Source of the DNA: Kiritimatiellales bacterium
Lineage (GTDB): Bacteria; Verrucomicrobiota; Kiritimatiellia; Kiritimatiellales; Pontiellaceae
NCBI GenBank assembly: GCA_003230915.1
Contig: QIHI01000048.1
Span: 1-47,951 of the forward strand
Direction: 5' to 3'
Length of the DNA stretch: 47,951 nt
Below the pieces are notes generated by a model. The model was not told where the DNA came from. It made no database searches and saw nothing but the letters and a program-made list of their open reading frames with translations. Numbering within the stretch: the stretch's first letter is position 1; each line of letters begins with the position of its first letter. This document shows positions 2,990 through 17,744 of the stretch, in pieces. A program made the translations under genes and the position numbers.

Positions 2990-3755
2990 TCCAAAGCCTT
3001 GAGGTTCTTTCGGAGGTCGGTACATCTGCCGGGCGAACCACCGGCTACACCTATGCACCGGACAAGCGTGTTACCCCCCTAACCCAGTATCTGGAAAAAG
3101 ACGAACAAACCCTCCCTGTTCGCACCGACTTCGACCTCGACGAACAGGCCAATGTCCTACGTATCTCCGAACCACGCGGCCCGCTATGTCGAAAGCTATC
3201 AGCGCGACATCCAAGATCGCGCCATCGCCGTCACCAACATTGAAAACCAAGTCATGACGATCGACTACGCCCTCGGCGACTTTATCAACCAAATCACCCA
3301 CTTCGATCAGTCCGCCATCACCAACGTATATGATTCAGCCGGTCGTTTGACCCAGATGGCCTACTCCGGTGGAACCACCCTCGACTACAGTTATTATCCC
3401 GATGGCGAATTGAAGACGAGTGCCGATAGCTTAAGCTCGATTTCGAATTCTTATGATCGACTCAACCGCCTCACAAACCAGATTGTTCAAGTCGGCAATC
3501 TGCAATCGGAAATTGGCAATACGTTTGATTCAGTCGGCAACATCACCAACACCACCATCCAGACCGGCTGGATACCGCAGGTCGAGGGGGCAAACTTCTG
3601 GATCGCCGCATCAGCCGTATCGCAGGAAGCAAAACGAATTTATTCGTTTACGCCGACAACCAAGTCGTCGCCGATCTCGATGGCTCGGGTAACCTCCTGC
3701 GCACCTATGTCTGGGGCAAGGCATCGACAACTTGCTCAGCTTCACCGACCTATAA
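2990..3755 (+). pseudogene. Decayed RHS/YD-repeat protein fragment
   Basis: YD-repeat-like segments spread over more than one frame: GRTTGYTYAPDKR..., NVYDSAGRLTQMAYSGGTTLDYSYYPDGEL, SYDRLNRLTNQI, then LDRRISRIAGSKTNLFVYADNQVVADLDGSGNLLRTYVWGK; a further 1-nt shift restores GIDNLLSFTDL-stop. No intact start. Confidence 0.8.
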
Positions 3756-3899
3756 AATTGAGCTTCCATTCGTATATTTGGTTTCTCATATTTTATAGCT
3801 CACCTTTGAGTGCAGACTGATTGAAAAGCCAGATAAATAGGCGAAGATGATCGGAGAAGAGAAGGTCAATCCGGACGCAATTGCCCTTGGATATTCCTA

Positions 3900-4853
3900 T
3901 TAGAGTTCTTTCCAGAAGCCGGTCGGCTCCTGGCCGATACGCCAGTAGGCGGTACCGCGGATGGGGTGGCGGGCGTAAAGATCGACCTTGGCCTTTAGGG
4001 ACTGGACGGTTTCGTAGTGGACATTGATCGTGACGGTTTCGGTGAAGAAGTAGCTTCCGCCGGTCTCGGGGTTCCATGTGGATGTAATGTCTTTTTCCAG
4101 TAGCTCCTCCACGATTTCTGCGTTTTTGTAGGCTCGCGCAAGGGTGGGGGTTTGCCAACCACGCCCGTAGAGTGGGATTCCCATAATAAGTTTATCGGAG
4201 GGGATGGTTGAGCGCGCGTAGTCATAGATTTTCTCACACCATGGCAACGAGGCGACGGGGCCGGGGCCGCCGCCGCGGTAGTGTTCGTCGTAGGCCATGA
4301 CGATGATACGGTCGGCGATCATGCCGATGAAGGGATAGTCAAAGGCATCGTTGGGGTTTGTCCGTTTATGGTCGGCCCAACGTGCCATGACGGCCACGCT
4401 GAAAAGCTTGTCTTTGGGTAACGCTTTCTTGACGCCGGCAAGAAAATCGAGATAAGCGGTTCCGTCGTTTCCCTCGATGCTTTCGAAGTCGATTTGGATG
4501 CCATCGAAAGGAGCCGCGCGCTCGGTAATTCCGGCAATGATCCGGTTGCGAAAGGGGAGTTCGGGATTGAGATAGATGTGCGCCAGCGTCGGATTCCAGG
4601 GGAGGGTGATAACGAGATGATAGCGGGCTCCAGGGCGCGCACCGGGCAGAGTGGGTGGTAGAAGGTGGCCACCCTTTAGATTGCCGTCGCCATCAATCTG
4701 CGCACTGAAGCAGGCAATATCGGTGATGGGGGATTGGGCGGGAAAGTGCTTTTCCTCGCCCTTCATGAGATAGGCCCATGTTTCAGGGAGGGAGGCAGCT
4801 TGGCTACACGTTGCAGAGCAGCTCAGCAGGAGTGCGATAAGAATATTTTTCAT
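3900..4853 (-). CDS. Secreted glycoside hydrolase family 18-like protein
   Basis: N-terminal signal peptide (MKNILIALLLSCSATCSQA); catalytic-type motif FDGIQIDFESIEG (DxxDxDxE-like); IIVMAYDEHYRGGGPGPVASL and IMGIPLYGRGW are typical of the family. Confidence 0.85.
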   Translation of the reverse strand: MKNILIALLLSCSATCSQAASLPETWAYLMKGEEKHFPAQSPITDIACFSAQIDGDGNLKGGHLLPPTLPGARPGARYHLVITLPWNPTLAHIYLNPELPFRNRIIAGITERAAPFDGIQIDFESIEGNDGTAYLDFLAGVKKALPKDKLFSVAVMARWADHKRTNPNDAFDYPFIGMIADRIIVMAYDEHYRGGGPGPVASLPWCEKIYDYARSTIPSDKLIMGIPLYGRGWQTPTLARAYKNAEIVEELLEKDITSTWNPETGGSYFFTETVTINVHYETVQSLKAKVDLYARHPIRGTAYWRIGQEPTGFWKEL

Positions 4854-4903: not shown

Positions 4904-7900
4904 TTATGCCGCTCCAGCCTTAGGTTCGGCATTCTTGTTGGGCATGACAATTTCCGAGGCCACCTTTTTAAAGGGAAGGCTGATTGTGAGTGCGGTGACA
5001 TCACCCTTCCGGTATTCGAGATCAATTGTCCCGCCCATCATCTGGACATAGCGCTGGGCGAGAGAGAGGCCATACTGCATCTCCTCGATTTCGCGATCCT
5101 CTGTACCGAAAATCCGGGAGAGCCGCTCGTCCTCTTTCGCCGCTCCGGTGTAGGCCAGTTCAAAGTTTACAGAAACGGAGTTACCTTCTTCCGACTTATG
5201 CGCAGCATGCAGGCCGAGTCGGCCTTTATCGGTATGGGCGAGGGCATAGCCCAGTACGATACCCAGCACTTTACGAACCTTTTCCTCATCGCCCTCCACG
5301 AGTTTGGGCAGATTGTGGGCGGACTGGTATTGCGCATAGCTTACCGCAAAGAATAACTTCTTGGTTTTGGCACGGGCGGAAAACTGTTGGTCAAGGTCGT
5401 GGATCAGTTCGTGCAGGTTGCATTTGGTGGGTTTAACATCGTCGGAGCCGTCGGCGAGGTGACTGAGTTCTCGGCGATAGTTCATGGTATCGATCAGGGT
5501 GCGGCAGTTTCGATTAATGATTTCCATATTAAACTTTTGTGCCTCCGTGAGATTCTCGGCCGTTCCAATTGCGGTGGCAGACTGCACCACGGGATCGAGC
5601 GAGGTTTGGATGGCTTCCGTAACTTCATCAACAATTTTACTGTTTTTTTGATTGGCGGTCTGAGCTTCATCAAGATTTTGCTGGAGTTCGGCCTGCCGTT
5701 TTTTCAGTTCGGAAATATCGTTTACGACGGCAAGAACCAGTTGCCGTTCTTCGATCTGGATCATGCTTAGGGAGACAAGACTATGGAAGGTTGCTTTGTC
5801 GGCTTTCCGGAATTGCCACTCGAAGTTGGCATGCCCAGTCTTCAGCACCGAACGAAACTGCTCGTTGGCCAGATCGAGGGAGAGGTTGTTTCCGGGTTGC
5901 TGCTTCGGGGAAAGGGCCTCAATGGTTTTGCCTACCAGAGTTTTGGTGGTTTCTTCGCCAAACAGATGAGCAGCGGCCAGATTGGCAGATCCAATCTTTC
6001 CGGTTTTCGGATCGATCTGGAAGAAGGCATCGGCCGATGCCTGGAAAAGGGTACGGTAGTATTTTTCCTTTTGGCGTAACTCCTTTTGCTCGTCCTTGAC
6101 GTGTTTGATTTCGGCGAGGTTATCTTTTTTTATTCGCGCGATTTCCGCCTCGATTCCTTTGGCATCCTGTCCGGAACGTTTGATCATTTCCGCAAGGTCA
6201 AATTCGGCATTCTCTCGCCCTTTTTGAGACTCGGTCAGTTCGTTGCTACGTGTGTCGATGGTTTGCTGAAGAGTCTCGGATTTCTTTTTCAGGGTTGCTT
6301 CAGTTTTCTGCATTGCGGTTTCGTTTTTCTTGTGCAGTTTAATCTGTGTATTGAGTTCTTCTGTTTTTTGTTCGATCAGCGCATCGAGATTTTCTTGGCT
6401 GGAATTGAAGGCCAACTGGAGCTCCTTCAGCTCTTTTTCAGAGCGGATACGGAGGTCGGTTTCGGTCTGTAGCTTTTCGGAAAACGTTTGGATGGTTTTC
6501 TCTAGCTCGGTTCTCTGTTTCCCGAGGAGCTCTTTCTGCTGGCGGAGATCGCCTTCTGTTTGCTTGAGTACTTTTATCTCATTTTGAAGGGATGTGGTTT
6601 CCTTTTCAATCAGTTGGGTTTGATCGGATTTTTCTCGCTCAAGATATTCCTGCGCCTCGGATAGGGCAGCCGCGAGCTGTTGCTGCTCTTTAATGGCCTT
6701 GGCCAAATCCTCGGCTTGAATTTTAGATTGCTCCTGAAGTGCCTCTTTCTCTTGCAGAAGGTCGCCAGCTTGCTTGCGCAACCGAATTTCCCCGAGCCGA
6801 ATTTCCGCGATGTTAAGATTTAATTTTTGAGTTTCGCGCTCAATCAGCTGATCTTGACGGGTATTTGTTTGTTCAAGCTTTTGCTCGGCCTGTTGCCGTT
6901 CGACCTCTGCCTCCTCGCGCGCCTGAACTTGGTTGCTATTTTCCCGAGCCTTTGATTCCAACGCTTTTTCCAGATCTTTAATGCGTTCGCCGAGCGACTT
7001 TTCCTGCTGGCGGAGGGCTTTTTCATGAATTTGTTTTTTGGCCAACTCCCGCTTCAAGGTCTTGGTTTCTTCCTCGATTCGAAGGTTGAACTGCTGCTTG
7101 AGTTCGTCGAGTTCTTCCGTATTCTTGATCAGTTTTGTGGTAGCATTTTTACGTTCATCCACTTCATGCTCAAGCTCGGTGGTGTGCTGCTCCGTGAGTG
7201 TTTGAATACGTTCCTGAGCCGCCTTCAGTAGGACATCGATTTTCTTTAGCTGATTTTCCGCAGTACGGCGGGCGGTATGCTCGGTGCCGAATTCTTTCTT
7301 TTGCGCTTCGGCGAGTTTGTCCGCTTTCTGCTTGCTCGTTTTTTCAAGTGATTCGAGTTCCTTTTGGTAGGTAAGCAGTCCGGCCTGGTTGGTTTCAAGA
7401 GTGGCTTCGGTTTGTTTGTGGCGGGTAATTTCCTGTTTAAGCAGCTTTCCGCGGTCGGTGGCGAAGGCTTCGAGCTTCCGCAATTCGTTCTCCTTGATCT
7501 CGATGAGCTCTTCCCACTTCTTGCGCTTATCGGTTTCGTTTCCGAGTTCGGTCAACCGGCTGGCCAGCTGCTCTTCAAGTTGTTTTTGGTGGGTTAGTAA
7601 CGTCTTTTCGTTGCGCCGCAATAGTTCCTCGGTGCGTTTGCGTTCGTTGAACTGTTCCTTGAATTCGTGTTGGCGGTTGTCGAGTTCGGCCTCGCGAATC
7701 GTGAGCGTTTGGTTGGTGTTGCGCAGGTCGGTGACCGTCTTGGCATATTCGATTTTTGATTTTTCAAGTTCGCTGGTGCGCCGGCGAAGATGTTGTTCGA
7801 GTTGCTGGCGTTCGTGTTTGGCCTCGCCCTCTTTTTCTTTCCGGTCGGTGATCTCGAGGGAGAGTCCAACGGTGCCCTCGACCAGTCCGTCGTCGGAGAC

Positions 7901-9313
7901 GAGAGGAATCTGGACGGTTTCCATCCACCCGGATTTTTTGCGGGTTTCATATGGGCGCTCGATTCGGCTGAGGGTGCCGCTCTTCATGACGTCGATGGCG
8001 TTTTTATCGTGATCACGCGGCGTGGCGGGCATAACTTCGAAAATAGTTTTTCCAATCCAGGCTTCCTGGGGAATACCGGTTCGGTCGGCCAGTTTCCGGC
8101 TGGCATAGAGATAGCGACAGCGGGTGTCCTTCACGTGAACATCGGCCGGAAGAGCATCGAGTATACGGTGCATGAAGCGGGTTTGGCTGGTCAGTTCTTC
8201 CAGTTCACGCCGTTGCTGACTGACATTCTGCTGAGCCCCGCGGATGCCGACGAGTGTACGGTCTTCGACGAGTCCGATTACGTTGTTAACCAGGTTAAGT
8301 CGGTTCCCGCGCGGGTCTTGCCGGACGGATTCGAAGTTGGACAGTTTGTAATTTGAGGCAATCAGCTTTTTGATGGCCTCGTGATTTTTGAAGGGGCCGC
8401 ACCCACCGGTGAGTTCGCTGATTCCTTTACCAACCAGTGCTGAGGGGGAGCTTCCGTACAGTGCGGCGAATGTTTCGCTACAGGCGACAATTTTCATCTT
8501 TTCCATGATGGCTACAGCCATTTTTTCGGCGGAATCAATCAGCGGGATAGGAGCTTCGGGGGCGAGGTGGTAATACCCCTCGATGGTTTCTCCAACGAAG
8601 CGGGCGTGGCGTGCAGTTTCTGCCTTTTCCAGAAGCTGCTCTTTGTGGAATGGCGTAACATCCGAAATCCAACCCATATAACTTTCAACATCCTGGCGAG
8701 CATTGAGTACCTTGTTTGCACGGCAGGCCACGTGGGTTTCAACCCCTTTGGCCTTCTGGAAGCGGAAGGTGATCGAGAGGGGATCGTTCCCTTTGAGAAA
8801 AGTAGCCCACGCTTGGTTGAAGCGCTCGCGATCTTTGGGATGGATGGCGCTTTGAAAGCCTTCTTTTAGAGCCTTTTTGGGATAGAGACCGGAGAGCGTT
8901 TGCAGCGCCGAGTTAATGTAGATGCATTTCCCAGTCAGATCTATTTGAAACATGCCGATCTCGGCCTCGAAGAGAATATTTTGGTAACGGCTTGTGGTTT
9001 GCTTTAGCGCTTTTTTGGATTGTTCGAGCTTCTGATTGGTTCCCGTGAGGGATTCACGAGTGCTTCCAAGTTCGGAGGTTACGTCTTTAAGCTGTCGGCA
9101 GGCCGCGTTGAATCGCTGTTGGAACAAAAAGAAGAGGGTGATGGAGCAGAGAAGAAGGGCGCCGATAATAAAAAAGGCAGTCATATTCATCTCGACTGGG
9201 AAAGTGGCATTCAGTCGTTCGGCAGTCTGAGCGTGAGAGGTTCCGGGCCACAACATAGCAAGTGCTGCTCCTGCAAGGAGGGCAATGAATTTTGTATTTG
9301 GATGCATTCTCAT
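4904..9313 (-). CDS. Membrane multi-PAS protein with long coiled coil and degenerate histidine-kinase C-terminus (putative pseudokinase)
   Basis: 1469 aa: signal/TM N-terminus, three PAS-like regions, several hundred residues of E/K/Q-rich heptad-like sequence, a fourth PAS (YYRTLFQASADAFFQIDPKTGKIGSAN), then a HisKA/HATPase-like tail (VEGDEEKVRKVLGIVLGYALAHTDKG ... YGLSLAQRYVQMMGGTIDLEYRKGDVTALTISLPF). Confidence 0.85.
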   Translation of the reverse strand: MRMHPNTKFIALLAGAALAMLWPGTSHAQTAERLNATFPVEMNMTAFFIIGALLLCSITLFFLFQQRFNAACRQLKDVTSELGSTRESLTGTNQKLEQSKKALKQTTSRYQNILFEAEIGMFQIDLTGKCIYINSALQTLSGLYPKKALKEGFQSAIHPKDRERFNQAWATFLKGNDPLSITFRFQKAKGVETHVACRANKVLNARQDVESYMGWISDVTPFHKEQLLEKAETARHARFVGETIEGYYHLAPEAPIPLIDSAEKMAVAIMEKMKIVACSETFAALYGSSPSALVGKGISELTGGCGPFKNHEAIKKLIASNYKLSNFESVRQDPRGNRLNLVNNVIGLVEDRTLVGIRGAQQNVSQQRRELEELTSQTRFMHRILDALPADVHVKDTRCRYLYASRKLADRTGIPQEAWIGKTIFEVMPATPRDHDKNAIDVMKSGTLSRIERPYETRKKSGWMETVQIPLVSDDGLVEGTVGLSLEITDRKEKEGEAKHERQQLEQHLRRRTSELEKSKIEYAKTVTDLRNTNQTLTIREAELDNRQHEFKEQFNERKRTEELLRRNEKTLLTHQKQLEEQLASRLTELGNETDKRKKWEELIEIKENELRKLEAFATDRGKLLKQEITRHKQTEATLETNQAGLLTYQKELESLEKTSKQKADKLAEAQKKEFGTEHTARRTAENQLKKIDVLLKAAQERIQTLTEQHTTELEHEVDERKNATTKLIKNTEELDELKQQFNLRIEEETKTLKRELAKKQIHEKALRQQEKSLGERIKDLEKALESKARENSNQVQAREEAEVERQQAEQKLEQTNTRQDQLIERETQKLNLNIAEIRLGEIRLRKQAGDLLQEKEALQEQSKIQAEDLAKAIKEQQQLAAALSEAQEYLEREKSDQTQLIEKETTSLQNEIKVLKQTEGDLRQQKELLGKQRTELEKTIQTFSEKLQTETDLRIRSEKELKELQLAFNSSQENLDALIEQKTEELNTQIKLHKKNETAMQKTEATLKKKSETLQQTIDTRSNELTESQKGRENAEFDLAEMIKRSGQDAKGIEAEIARIKKDNLAEIKHVKDEQKELRQKEKYYRTLFQASADAFFQIDPKTGKIGSANLAAAHLFGEETTKTLVGKTIEALSPKQQPGNNLSLDLANEQFRSVLKTGHANFEWQFRKADKATFHSLVSLSMIQIEERQLVLAVVNDISELKKRQAELQQNLDEAQTANQKNSKIVDEVTEAIQTSLDPVVQSATAIGTAENLTEAQKFNMEIINRNCRTLIDTMNYRRELSHLADGSDDVKPTKCNLHELIHDLDQQFSARAKTKKLFFAVSYAQYQSAHNLPKLVEGDEEKVRKVLGIVLGYALAHTDKGRLGLHAAHKSEEGNSVSVNFELAYTGAAKEDERLSRIFGTEDREIEEMQYGLSLAQRYVQMMGGTIDLEYRKGDVTALTISLPFKKVASEIVMPNKNAEPKAGAA

Positions 9314-9328
9314 TTCGGATACCTTTGA

Positions 9329-10546
9329 TTAATAGTCTGTGGTGTTCTCGGTGGATGCGGGAGAATTTTCCTCGAGTTTCGTCGGGCGCAGGAAAAAGAA
9401 GACCGCGCTGAAAAAAACGATATAGCCGGTCAGGGGCGCGGAAGAATTTTGAGAGGCCTCTTTTTTCGAGGAGTCGGATTTAGCATTTGGTTGCGCCATG
9501 GCAACCTCGGGGCTTGAGCTGGAGGTCTTCATTTCTTTAAGCAGGGCTTCCAGCCGAGAGGGCTTGATTTCCTCGGGGGAATTCGGTGTGCTAGTGGGGG
9601 TGGAGGCCAGGGCAACGGGTACCGGAGTGGTCTGTATCTTGGTTTCGGTGCTTTTCTTAATATCGGAAAGCAGCATGTCAATAGAGCGCGGGTTAACAGA
9701 GGTTTTGGCTTTGATTAAAATCATATCTCGCTGAAAAACAGGGGTCATGAGTTCGCACCCTTGTGCAGCGACGATCCGCTTTTCGGTAATCATTCTTAAG
9801 ATTACATCTTTCTTGAGCTGTATAACCCATGTGGAGTTGATCTTTAGCTTTCCATAGTCACCGATAATGATCTTACGGCTGGAGTCGGCAAGGAAGGTAT
9901 CGAATGGATTAGCCTTGGTTTCGATGTGTACCGTTCCGCCCAAAATGTGGAGTTCGGCGGCTCCGCCTTTGTCCGCCAAGGTGTTGAGATCTAGTTTTTG
10001 AATGCGATAGGTGGATTGATCGCGAATAAAAATCTTTCCGGAACCGCTGCCGTTATTGCCGATCGATAATGTTCCGGTCACCGTTGAGCGATCCTTGAGG
10101 GTAACGGATCCTTTGCTGGCGGAGGTTCCAAACGATTTGGCCGCCAGGGCCAGCCGCCCGTTCAAGGAGAGATTATCGCTGATCGTAAGGTTGGCATGAC
10201 CCGAAGAGGAGGCCGGGATGTTTACGGTGCGCTTGTGCTCGATGGGACTCCACATGTTGATGTTCCCGTTCCCTTGTAGGAATAGATCCTGACCATAGAG
10301 CATCATGCCGTTGTCGAGTTCGATGGTGCTGTTCACGGCAATTACGGCGTTGGGAGTACGGAAGTGCACGGACTCTTCTCCAGTGGGAACATGCTTGAGT
10401 TTCCACTTATAAGGGTCACTCCATTCGGCTTTAATTTCGTTGCCGCGCCAGAGATTTATTGATTGTGCCGAGGAGGAGATGGCCGCTCCGAAAAGTACGG
10501 CCAGTGTGAGTAAAGTATTTAGTTGGATTCTGTTTTTCATGTCCAT
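9329..10546 (-). CDS. Secreted/anchored protein with a probable beta-helix-like passenger and C-terminal TM segment, unknown function
   Basis: Signal peptide (TLLTLAVLFGAAISSSAQ); repeated short beta-like segments with LTISDNLSLNGRLAL, VTGTLSIGNNGSGSGKIFI; C-terminal hydrophobic PLTGYIVFFSAVFFFLRP; ends 15 nt upstream of the 4904-9313 gene on the same strand. Confidence 0.7.
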   Translation of the reverse strand: MDMKNRIQLNTLLTLAVLFGAAISSSAQSINLWRGNEIKAEWSDPYKWKLKHVPTGEESVHFRTPNAVIAVNSTIELDNGMMLYGQDLFLQGNGNINMWSPIEHKRTVNIPASSSGHANLTISDNLSLNGRLALAAKSFGTSASKGSVTLKDRSTVTGTLSIGNNGSGSGKIFIRDQSTYRIQKLDLNTLADKGGAAELHILGGTVHIETKANPFDTFLADSSRKIIIGDYGKLKINSTWVIQLKKDVILRMITEKRIVAAQGCELMTPVFQRDMILIKAKTSVNPRSIDMLLSDIKKSTETKIQTTPVPVALASTPTSTPNSPEEIKPSRLEALLKEMKTSSSSPEVAMAQPNAKSDSSKKEASQNSSAPLTGYIVFFSAVFFFLRPTKLEENSPASTENTTDY

Positions 10547-10755
10547 CTCTCCCGTAAATTATCGGTGTTCTGGTTTAACTTTGATGGGAATATAAAAGCA
10601 GGATGCATGCCTTCTTTGGGGCAACATTTCTTATTGGGTGGAATTCGGGGTGATGGAGTCTGGCTGGGGTTTTAAAAATCAAACCTTGCCGGGTGTGTGG
10701 CATGGATGATGCTTAAAATAGTTGCAATTGAAGCAAACCCAACAGGGACGAATAG

Positions 10756-11499
10756 ATGAAAAACGCACAAAACTATTTATATGCAAAAGACGCGGAAACG
10801 CTGCAGGTTCCTTATGCCGACTATACCGCGCTAATGAAGAAGGTGGAGGAGGCACAGTGCCTTCAACAGGTTAAGGCAACCGTACTGGCCGATCTCCAGA
10901 AGTTTGTGGAGGATGCTCCGGTGGCTACTCGGAATACGCCGCCGGTAGCACCTGTAGCTCCGGTTGAGCTGAAAGCCGAACCGAAAATGACAGTGTCGGC
11001 CGATCCGGTCGAAGCGCTTAAAACGGAAAAAATCTCGGTCGAGTTTACATCGGAAACTCCCGAAGTTCCAAAGGCGGCGGAGCCCGTAATGATACGCACC
11101 GAGATTTCGGATGTCCCGCCGGTTAAAAAGGATATCATCGGGCATTTCAACAAGCTCGACGAGTCGGGCCGATTGCTCAACGTCTTTAAACAATACTACA
11201 CCTGTTTGAATGAAAATTGCGGAGGAACTGTGCGCGTGACCATGAAGGACGGTTTCTGCAGTCTGTGGAACTACGACGAATGGGAAGAGTTCGCATTCGT
11301 GGATATTTTTGAAAATCTTCTTCGTATCACGATCGACCCGCGCTACACGGAGGCGCTCAAGTCGCTGAACCTTTGCGAAGCGCCTCGCCTTATTTCCAGC
11401 CGCCGGAATGTGGTTTCCGTGCAGGTTGACGGTCTCAATAATATAGTACTCGAAACTCTTGCCAAGGCGTTTGCCGAGGTAGGCATGCAAATAAAATAA
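10756..11499 (+). CDS. Hypothetical cytosolic protein
   Basis: Complete 247-aa ORF after AACAGGGACGAATAG-ATG; no antisense competitor with recognisable content; no family recognised. Confidence 0.75.
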   Translation: MKNAQNYLYAKDAETLQVPYADYTALMKKVEEAQCLQQVKATVLADLQKFVEDAPVATRNTPPVAPVAPVELKAEPKMTVSADPVEALKTEKISVEFTSETPEVPKAAEPVMIRTEISDVPPVKKDIIGHFNKLDESGRLLNVFKQYYTCLNENCGGTVRVTMKDGFCSLWNYDEWEEFAFVDIFENLLRITIDPRYTEALKSLNLCEAPRLISSRRNVVSVQVDGLNNIVLETLAKAFAEVGMQIK

Positions 11500-11512
11500 C
11501 GTGGAGGGGACC

Positions 11513-12595
11513 ATGAAAAATGAAGCTCAAAAAAATATATTGTTTCTGGCGATAGCCGGAGTTGTTCTCGTTGCGCTCAACGTGGGCATTTTAATGGCAA
11601 CGAAAAACGGCAGTCTTGCGCCGATCGAAAACCTGACTCTTTGGGGCGCGTTCGTTGTGCTGAATATAAGCTCACTGCTATGGGCAGTTAGCCTTCTGGG
11701 ACTGCAGCCACTAGTGATTGCCTTTTCCTATCTAGCGGGTGGGTTTGTAGCCTTTCTAGGTGTTCGGCTGCTGCCGGAAGTGAATGTTGCCGAAGTCACC
11801 ACCGCCGGAGCCACCTACGGTGCGTTTGGTGCGCTGGCCGTCGGCAATGTCACAACCAAGGTGCGGCTGGCTTTCTTCGATAAAAAGCAGGTGCCCTTCG
11901 TATTTGTGATCGCCGCGCTTCTGCTGATGGATGGTTTCCTCAATAGCAGTGTCTCAAATGCGGGCTTGGGCGTAGTCGTTAATGCGCTGGTTCTTCCGTT
12001 TGTGATTTCCGGGGTGATCGTCGGCCTGATATGGGCTGGGTTGGCCCGGTTCGGCATCGGGGAAGGTTTTGTTCCTAGTTCGATCGAAGCCATGGCCGGA
12101 GCGCCGAGGGAAGAGCGCGTAGAAGCTATCGAAGAGAACCAGATCATGTTCCAGACTCCCGATACCATTGATGAGTCCGAAGAGCAGGAGCCTGCTGTGG
12201 CCATGGTCGTTATGGAACCTGTGGACAAACCTGAAGCTTTGGTTGAACCCGAACCCATCGTGATGGAGATCGTTGAAGGAACCGTCAGCTCGGAACCTGT
12301 GGAAGAGGATTCGGTCGACGAAAATAATTTCTTCCCGCTGGAGATTGATAAGGAAGACGAGATCATCCTTCCGCAAGAAGAGCTACAGTCGTTGGCTTCG
12401 GTCATCGGGGTGGCGGAATATATTCCAGAGCCGATTGTAGAGCCTACCCCCGTACAGGAACTTGAAGTGGTTGCCGAAGAACCTCCAGTACTAGAGGTGG
12501 AAGTAGCCTCGGAACCGGAAGAGAAAAAGGATTCTTCTCAGGATTGGTTGAGCGGTCACATGGATCTGTTGAACAACATTAAGAAAGCAAGCTAA
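11513..12595 (+). CDS. Multi-TM membrane protein with acidic cytoplasmic-type tail, unknown function
   Basis: ATG at 11513 preceded by GTGGAGGGGACC ribosome binding site (the longer ORF starts at 11501); about 5-6 hydrophobic helices, then a roughly 150-residue Glu/Pro/Val-rich tail ending DWLSGHMDLLNNIKKAS. Confidence 0.8.
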   Translation: MKNEAQKNILFLAIAGVVLVALNVGILMATKNGSLAPIENLTLWGAFVVLNISSLLWAVSLLGLQPLVIAFSYLAGGFVAFLGVRLLPEVNVAEVTTAGATYGAFGALAVGNVTTKVRLAFFDKKQVPFVFVIAALLLMDGFLNSSVSNAGLGVVVNALVLPFVISGVIVGLIWAGLARFGIGEGFVPSSIEAMAGAPREERVEAIEENQIMFQTPDTIDESEEQEPAVAMVVMEPVDKPEALVEPEPIVMEIVEGTVSSEPVEEDSVDENNFFPLEIDKEDEIILPQEELQSLASVIGVAEYIPEPIVEPTPVQELEVVAEEPPVLEVEVASEPEEKKDSSQDWLSGHMDLLNNIKKAS

Positions 12596-17390: not shown

Positions 17391-17744
17391 GGGGGCGACT
17401 GGTTTCGACGGGTAAGTTGAAGCTTCAGTGGCGTGTCGAGGTTGGCCTCCAGGCCTCGTAAAAAGGAGTCCAAAAAACATAAATGCTGACGAAAGTTACG
17501 CACTAGCGGCATAGTTCCGCTACGTCTCTACCCTGAAGCTTGTTAGGGGATAGAGGCGACGATAACAAGCTGGCGCCAAACCCGGGGATGCGGGGGGAGG
17601 AGCGAGAACCAACAGGATCCTAGCGACCAAAGTGGCTCAGACAGGCGGCAGCGGCGGCGGCGAATCCTTTAATGCCTGACTACACACGTAGAAGCTGCTG
17701 TGACTCTTATTCGGACGGGGGTTCGATTCCCCCCGCCTCCACCA
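17391..17744 (+). ncRNA. ssrA: Transfer-messenger RNA (tmRNA)
   Basis: 5' GGGGGCGACTGGTTTCGACGG and 3' GGGGGTTCGATTCCCCCCGCCTCCACCA tRNA-like ends; reading frame ...AACATAAATGCTGACGAAAGTTACGCACTAGCGGCATAG gives a tag ending NINADESYALAA. Confidence 0.96.

What the first reader, a model, noticed from the sequence alone, without database searches (positions are those of the whole stretch)
4904..9313. Giant multi-PAS coiled-coil protein with a histidine-kinase-derived but catalytically degenerate C-terminus
Seen directly: the segment SKIVDEVTEAIQTSLDPVV aligns without gaps to the HisKA H-box pattern SEFLANMSHEIRTPLNAI. The phospho-accepting His is replaced by Glu (codon at 5615-5617), and the following Glu-Ile-Arg-Thr-Pro reads Ala-Ile-Gln-Thr-Ser. 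The N-box pattern VLLNLLGNAIKFTEKG aligns with VLGIVLGYALAHTDKG, so both Asn residues are gone. The G1 region reads AYTGAAKEDERLSRIF and the G2 region YGLSLAQRYVQMMGG. The reading frame is intact over 1469 codons, so this is unlikely to be simple decay. Inference: the kinase fold has been kept as a scaffold or binding module on a membrane-anchored PAS sensor with a very long coiled coil.
Basis: partly seen in the sequence, partly recalled or inferred. Interest (0 to 1): 0.72.

Follow-up and report, generated by a model that had tools for sequence, protein, structure and literature searches.

The report
Conserved dead histidine kinase on rod
This is a membrane-anchored bacterial sensor protein whose kinase end lost its chemistry long ago yet stays under selection across a whole order (Kiritimatiellales), held on a very long repeat-built rod and encoded in a conserved five-gene module; it looks like a new family of "dead" signalling kinases that work by binding rather than by phosphorylating.

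Summary
The minus-strand ORF at 4904-9313 (1469 aa) ends in a histidine-kinase fold (AlphaFold pLDDT 84; closest solved folds GacS, RetS, DivL). Gapless alignment to intact paralogues of the same genome places Glu1233 at the phospho-His, Ile1352 and Tyr1356 at the N-box Asn, and Tyr1388 at the G1 Asp.

It is not a single-strain lesion. None of 21 aligned sequences (this one plus 20 homologues, two families of Kiritimatiellales) has the His, the N-box Asn or the G1 Asp, and the domain is under purifying selection. The Glu itself is not conserved (E/D/R/T/G).

- The coiled coil (residues ~495-1085) is a tandem 39/78-residue repeat resembling the ~40-residue signalling helix, up to ~88 nm long if fully helical.
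- The gene belongs to an all-or-none five-gene divergent module (GH18, pseudokinase, anchored exported protein / unknown protein, membrane protein).
- The intergenic region carries two divergent sigma-54-type promoter sites in all 15 loci examined.

Best reading: a pseudo-histidine kinase that signals by binding a partner, as DivL and RetS do. The partner is unknown. New variant of a known kind.

The parts
4904..9313 (-). Pseudo-histidine kinase ORF, 1469 aa: signal-like N-terminus, 1 TM, PAS domains, long repeat coiled coil, PAS D, degenerate DHp-CA
   Evidence: orthologues
9122..9178 (-). Single transmembrane helix (residues about 46-64) behind a signal-peptide-like N-terminus; places the rest in the cytoplasm (inference)
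   Evidence: hydropathy
8657..8989 (-). PAS A (residues 109-219)
   Evidence: PF00989
8204..8566 (-). PAS B (approximate, residues about 250-370)
   Evidence: further PAS stretches; exact limits inferred
7835..8161 (-). PAS C (residues 385-493), the most conserved domain of the protein (79-91% identity)
   Evidence: PF08448; conservation
6059..7831 (-). Coiled-coil rod (residues 495-1085), no Pro, tandem 39/78-residue repeat, S-helix-like
   Evidence: self-similarity peaks at offsets 39, 78, 156; hydrophobic period 3.546 = 39/11
5708..6031 (-). PAS D (residues 1095-1202), absent from many orthologues, where coil replaces it
   Evidence: PF13426; alignment
5444..5701 (-). Degenerate DHp (residues 1205-1290); Glu1233 (5615-5617) sits at the phospho-His position
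4964..5428 (-). Degenerate CA/HATPase fold (residues 1296-1450): Ile1352 and Tyr1356 at N1 and N2, Tyr1388 at the G1 Asp, lid shortened, G2 reads MQYGLSLA
4907..4918 (-). C-terminal tail AGAA; GAA-COOH in all 17 sequences of the nearer family, after a variable linker
3900..4853 (-). GH18 hydrolase with signal peptide, last gene of the presumed operon
   Evidence: PF00704; synteny
9329..10546 (-). 405-aa protein: signal peptide, C-terminal single TM (GYIVFF...LR), no Pfam family; first gene of the presumed operon
10756..11499 (+). 247-aa conserved protein of unknown family, divergent operon; C-terminal domain weakly like YjbR/double-wing folds
11501..12595 (+). 364-aa multi-TM protein with an acidic tail, divergent operon
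10698..10713 (+). Sigma-54-type -24/-12 site TGGCATGGATGATGCT in front of the + operon
10597..10612 (-). Sigma-54-type -24/-12 site AGGCATGCATCCTGCT in front of the - operon

Best explanation
The gene encodes an inner-membrane-anchored, cytoplasmic multi-PAS protein, presumably a dimer, whose C-terminal histidine-kinase core cannot accept phosphate at the usual place (no His) and is very unlikely to bind or hydrolyse ATP in the normal way (no N-box Asn, no G1 Asp, short lid). [Residue losses and predicted fold shown; biochemical inactivity inferred.] The fold has been kept by selection in Kiritimatiellales as a protein-binding head. [Conservation shown; binding inferred.] A PAS-sensed signal is passed down a long rod made of tandem S-helix-like 39-residue units and changes the conformation of the pseudo-DHp/CA head, which then binds and tunes a partner, most plausibly an active histidine kinase or a receiver domain, as RetS does to GacS and DivL does with DivK/CckA. 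[Inferred.] Its output concerns the cell envelope: it lies in a presumed operon with an exported GH18 hydrolase and a membrane-anchored exported protein, in a divergent module with sigma-54-type promoter sites. [Gene order, co-occurrence and sites shown; regulation and envelope role inferred.]
For: Mapping by gapless alignment to intact kinases of the same genome; AF2 fold and Foldseek/hmmsearch hits led by GacS, RetS and DivL. None of 21 aligned sequences has the His, the N-box Asn or the G1 Asp, including distant family-f2 proteins at 25-37% identity. Purifying selection on DHp and CA. Residues invariant in all 21 (such as P1241, F1322, D1342, G1364, G1367, H1369, F1384, L1416) argue for a retained fold and surface. 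39/78-residue repeats in orthologues match the size of the ~40-residue S-helix linker known between sensor and kinase domains (PMC1592074). The neighbours occur only with this gene in family f1, in fixed order. Divergent -24/-12 sites in 15 of 15 loci; RpoN and three clear enhancer-binding ATPases are encoded. Precedents: DivL, PMC4211667; RetS, PMC5992135.
Against: No partner kinase or receiver is encoded in the module, so partner binding rests on analogy. The phosphatase motif (HExxT/N) that RetS keeps in its H-box is gone, so at least one RetS mechanism is excluded. The head might be purely structural. The PAS ligand is unknown. The sigma-54 sites are consensus matches kept across orthologues, not mapped promoters; genome-wide the pattern is not enriched over its reversed control (4 against 3), and the left-hand sites taken singly score only about the 99th percentile of shuffles.
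Confidence: 0.55

Rival explanations
1. The protein is a structural tether or scaffold, not a signal transducer: the long rod and the dead DHp-CA head serve to space or anchor an envelope-associated complex (with the GH18 and anchored proteins), and the PAS domains act as assembly modules.
For: Rod of about 590 residues (about 88 nm if helical), far longer than needed for signal relay, built of tandem repeats; PAS D is dispensable; constant association with envelope genes; no two-component gene in the module.
Against: PAS C is the most conserved part, as expected for a sensed or relayed signal; the repeat resembles a signal-transmitting helix; a kinase fold would be an odd tether end.
Confidence: 0.28
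2. An unconventional enzyme or ligand-binding domain: the pocket still binds some nucleotide or another ligand using Tyr1356, Tyr1388 and His1369.
For: The substitutions are themselves conserved (Y18/H3 at N2, Y20/F1 at G1, invariant His1369), and the pocket fold is retained.
Against: The Asn and Asp residues that hold Mg-ATP are lost and the lid is shortened; no conserved alternative acceptor at the H position (E/D/R/T/G).
Confidence: 0.1
3. Simple decay of a once active kinase in one strain.
For: Two relatives have split frames (L039/L042 and L058).
Against: Intact frame of 1469 codons here; the same losses in 20 homologues of two families; pN/pS well below 1.
Confidence: 0.02

Closest known systems
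DivL (Caulobacter crescentus), PDB 4q20
   Same: Membrane-anchored multi-PAS pseudo-histidine kinase with its His replaced, weak ATP binding and retained dimer fold; found by fold and by profile (PMC4211667)
   Different: DivL has Tyr at the His position; here it is E/D/R/T/G. No DivK/CckA/CtrA context seen in the module. To my knowledge DivL has no 590-residue repeat rod, and it is not in a module of this kind.
RetS (Pseudomonas aeruginosa), PDB 6dk7/6dk8, and its partner GacS 7z8n
   Same: Closest kinase-core folds and profiles (fold E 4e-18 to about 1e-15, profile E 5e-24 to 3e-22); RetS also has a degenerate HATPase lacking its G-boxes and acts on another kinase (PMC5992135)
   Different: RetS keeps the H-box with its HExxT phosphatase motif and carries receiver domains; this protein has neither.
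Signalling helix (S-helix) linkers, Anantharaman et al. 2006 (PMC1592074)
   Same: Coiled-coil unit of about 40 residues between sensor and kinase domains with an ERT signature; units here are 39 residues with ET/RT/KT-EL-like motifs
   Different: S-helices are described as single linkers of about 40 residues; here 39/78-residue units are chained through about 590 residues.
ChrS pseudokinase variant (Corynebacterium glutamicum, PMC9491836)
   Same: A pseudokinase version of a histidine kinase with a physiological effect
   Different: Known here only from a search listing; not compared in detail.

Membership tests
Histidine-kinase fold (HisKA + HATPase_c) | DHp helical hairpin plus Bergerat-type alpha/beta CA domain | tested here: met
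   AF2 model pLDDT 84.4; Foldseek E 4e-18 to GacS; hmmsearch E 5e-24; PF02518 just over its cut-off
Active histidine kinase | Phospho-accepting His in the H-box | tested here: not met
   E/D/R/T/G in 21 of 21 sequences
Active histidine kinase | N-box Asn and G1 Asp for Mg-ATP | tested here: not met
   N1 = I/T/V/A/S, N2 = Y/H, G1 Asp = Y/F in 21 of 21
Pseudo-histidine kinases (broad class) | Kinase fold kept by selection but lacking catalytic residues | tested here: met
   the class is described in PMC12632262
Pseudo-histidine kinases (broad class) | Demonstrated lack of autophosphorylation or ATP binding | not testable with these tools
   needs purified protein
DivL family | Tyr at the His position | tested here: not met
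DivL family | Binds DivK~P and controls CckA | not testable with these tools
   no such genes in the module
RetS | Intact H-box with HExxT phosphatase motif | tested here: not met
   reads E-A-I-Q-T; no His in any homologue and H+1 is A/T/V/M/D
RetS | C-terminal receiver domains | tested here: not met
S-helix | Coiled coil of about 40 residues with an ERT signature | tested here: inconclusive
   39/78-residue periodicity is clear; ERT-like motifs seen by eye in several units; no S-helix profile was available
Sigma-54 promoters | -24 GG and -12 GC with 10-base spacing upstream of both operons | tested here: met
   15 of 15 loci on both sides, scores 13-17 of 17; shuffle mean 11.3, 99th percentile 14
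Sigma-54 promoters | Transcription depends on RpoN | not testable with these tools
   RpoN and three clear enhancer-binding ATPases are encoded

The most novel reading that the evidence does not exclude
An order-wide family of doubly degenerate (DHp and CA) pseudo-histidine kinases in which an array of S-helix units forms a rod of nearly 100 nm linking membrane PAS sensors to a distant binding head, at the core of a new sigma-54-controlled envelope module in Kiritimatiellales.
Probability: 0.35. Interest if true: 0.65.

Novelty: new variant of a known kind. Interest (0 to 1): 0.5.

Why it matters
Pseudo-histidine kinases are rare (about 0.9% of HisKA domains lack the His, PMC12632262) and few are understood. 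Here is one found across an order, with losses in both subdomains, an extreme repeat-built linker and a tightly co-inherited, probably sigma-54-controlled gene module. It offers a natural test of how a signal travels along a very long coiled coil and of what a kinase fold is kept for once catalysis is gone.

Tried and rejected
(1) Glu as a conserved phosphomimetic: rejected, the position varies. (2) Single-strain lesion: rejected. (3) The AGAA tail as an ssrA-like degron: the genome's tmRNA tag is ADESYALAA, which ends LAA, not GAA; left open. (4) A neighbouring two-component gene as partner: none in the block; a receiver-like gene lies about 1.5 kb from the f2 homologue in L060 among riboflavin/nusB-type genes, with no sign of linkage. 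(5) A genome-wide sigma-54 regulon: the other three pattern hits are inside, or not clearly in front of, genes and no more numerous than the reversed control. (6) Structure of the 247-aa neighbour: low overall confidence (pLDDT 64); best fold hits YjbR and phage T4 MotA C-domain at E 0.005-0.03, too weak to name it. (7) A 39-residue profile scan with a poor background gave false hits in PAS domains; only the regular 39-residue spacing was used from it. (9) A paper search linking sigma-54, exosortase and Kiritimatiellales found nothing.
Full report
What was checked. The minus-strand ORF at 4904-9313 encodes 1469 residues without a break. Pfam recognises PAS domains at about 109-219, 385-493 and 1095-1202, with further PAS stretches, and a HATPase_c at 1341-1449 that only just passes its cut-off; HisKA is not recognised. 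The genome is a 1.9 Mb assembly whose named relatives are labelled Kiritimatiellales and Verrucomicrobia.

The degenerate kinase is real. AlphaFold2 with 21 sequences gives a DHp hairpin and a CA sandwich (mean pLDDT 84.4, pTM 0.77). The closest solved structures are GacS, RetS and, a little further, DivL, by fold and by sequence profile. Two of these three, RetS and DivL, are themselves known repurposed kinases.

It is old and selected, not decayed. Homologues occur in 21 of 29 genomes of the same family and 25 of 43 of the same order; in a sample of 291 genomes of the phylum none was found outside the order at E<=1e-40, with the caveat that only two candidates per genome were scored. Among 21 aligned C-termini (this one and 20 others, two families) the H position is E13, D4, G2, R1, T1; N1 is I/T/V/A/S; N2 is Y18/H3; the G1 Asp is Y20/F1. 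Codon comparisons with the closer orthologues give pN/pS of 0.15-0.27 for the DHp and 0.14-0.34 for the CA (up to 0.49 with more distant ones), with synonymous sites near saturation. PAS C is the most conserved domain. All 17 sequences of the nearer family end in GAA after a variable linker.

The rod. Residues 495-1085 hold no proline and 48% E/K/R/Q. The sequence resembles itself at offsets of 39, 78 and 156 residues (mean BLOSUM62 0.24, 0.30 and 0.46 against -0.31 +/- 0.09 for shuffles), and hydrophobic residues recur every 3.546 residues, which is 39/11. The 78-residue period is among the top two in 12 of 12 intact orthologues tested in the family and is the top one in two of four from the second family; a third of those peaks at 110 and 39, and one shows no clear period in the segment tested. 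The unit size and its ET/RT-EL motifs recall the signalling helix, described as about 40 residues with an ERT signature between sensor and kinase domains (PMC1592074). That this is a chained S-helix array is inference. At about 0.15 nm per residue of coiled coil (general knowledge) the rod would reach about 88 nm.

The module. In family f1 the gene sits in a fixed five-gene block: on one strand the 405-aa exported, C-terminally anchored protein, this gene and a GH18 hydrolase, with gaps of 15 and 50 bases; divergently, a 247-aa protein and a 364-aa membrane protein. The three unnamed neighbours are found in 18-19 f1 genomes, all of which also have this gene, and the eight f1 genomes without it lack them too; the GH18 was tested by synteny only. 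Some assemblies are fragmentary, and the eight absences may reflect few losses. In the second family 4 of 14 genomes have the pseudokinase, and none has the three neighbours. The intergenic region 10547-10755 holds two divergently pointing sites that match the sigma-54 -24/-12 consensus; both are present in all 15 loci examined, with scores 13-17 of 17. RpoN is found in 28 of 29 genomes of the family, including those without the block, and this genome has three clear enhancer-binding ATPases.

How it most likely works. Shown: the anatomy, the lost catalytic residues, the conservation, the gene module and the sites. Inferred: a PAS sensor on the cytoplasmic side of the membrane relays a conformational change down the rod to a dead kinase head that binds and tunes a partner. 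DivL lacks kinase and phosphatase activity yet binds DivK~P (PMC4211667); RetS has a degenerate HATPase and inhibits GacS (PMC5992135). The main rival is a purely structural tether for an envelope complex.

Placement. It belongs to the broad class of pseudo-histidine kinases (PMC12632262) but meets neither the DivL nor the RetS definition. New variant of a known kind.

Noticed in passing
window 10547-10755: Two divergent sigma-54-type -24/-12 sites conserved in 15 orthologous loci, pointing at both operons of the five-gene block.
   Followed up: yes
window 17391-17744: tmRNA gene with tag peptide ADESYALAA.
   Followed up: no
window 4907-4918: GAA C-terminus shared by all 17 sequences of the nearer family after a variable linker; possible C-terminal recognition signal.
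   Followed up: partly
L039/L042 (G018) and L058 (G011): Orthologue split into two frames: in L039/L042 about 118 coil residues are replaced by about 114 bases (close to one 78-residue repeat lost); in L058 a break near residue 360. May be assembly errors.
   Followed up: partly
window 3152-3820: ORF with a weak RHS/YD-repeat match between infB and the GH18 gene, possibly a remnant.
   Followed up: no
window 10756-11499: Highly conserved 247-aa protein without a Pfam family; C-terminal domain weakly like YjbR and phage T4 MotA double-wing folds.
   Followed up: partly
window 9329-10546 and orthologues: Exported protein whose C-terminus carries a conserved GYIxFxGxxLLxLRR-like membrane segment, resembling a sorting/anchor tail.
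   Followed up: partly
family f1 genomes G005, G006, G007, G010: Small genomes of 1.1-1.3 Mb in the same genus lack the module (the pseudokinase and its three unnamed neighbours).
   Followed up: no
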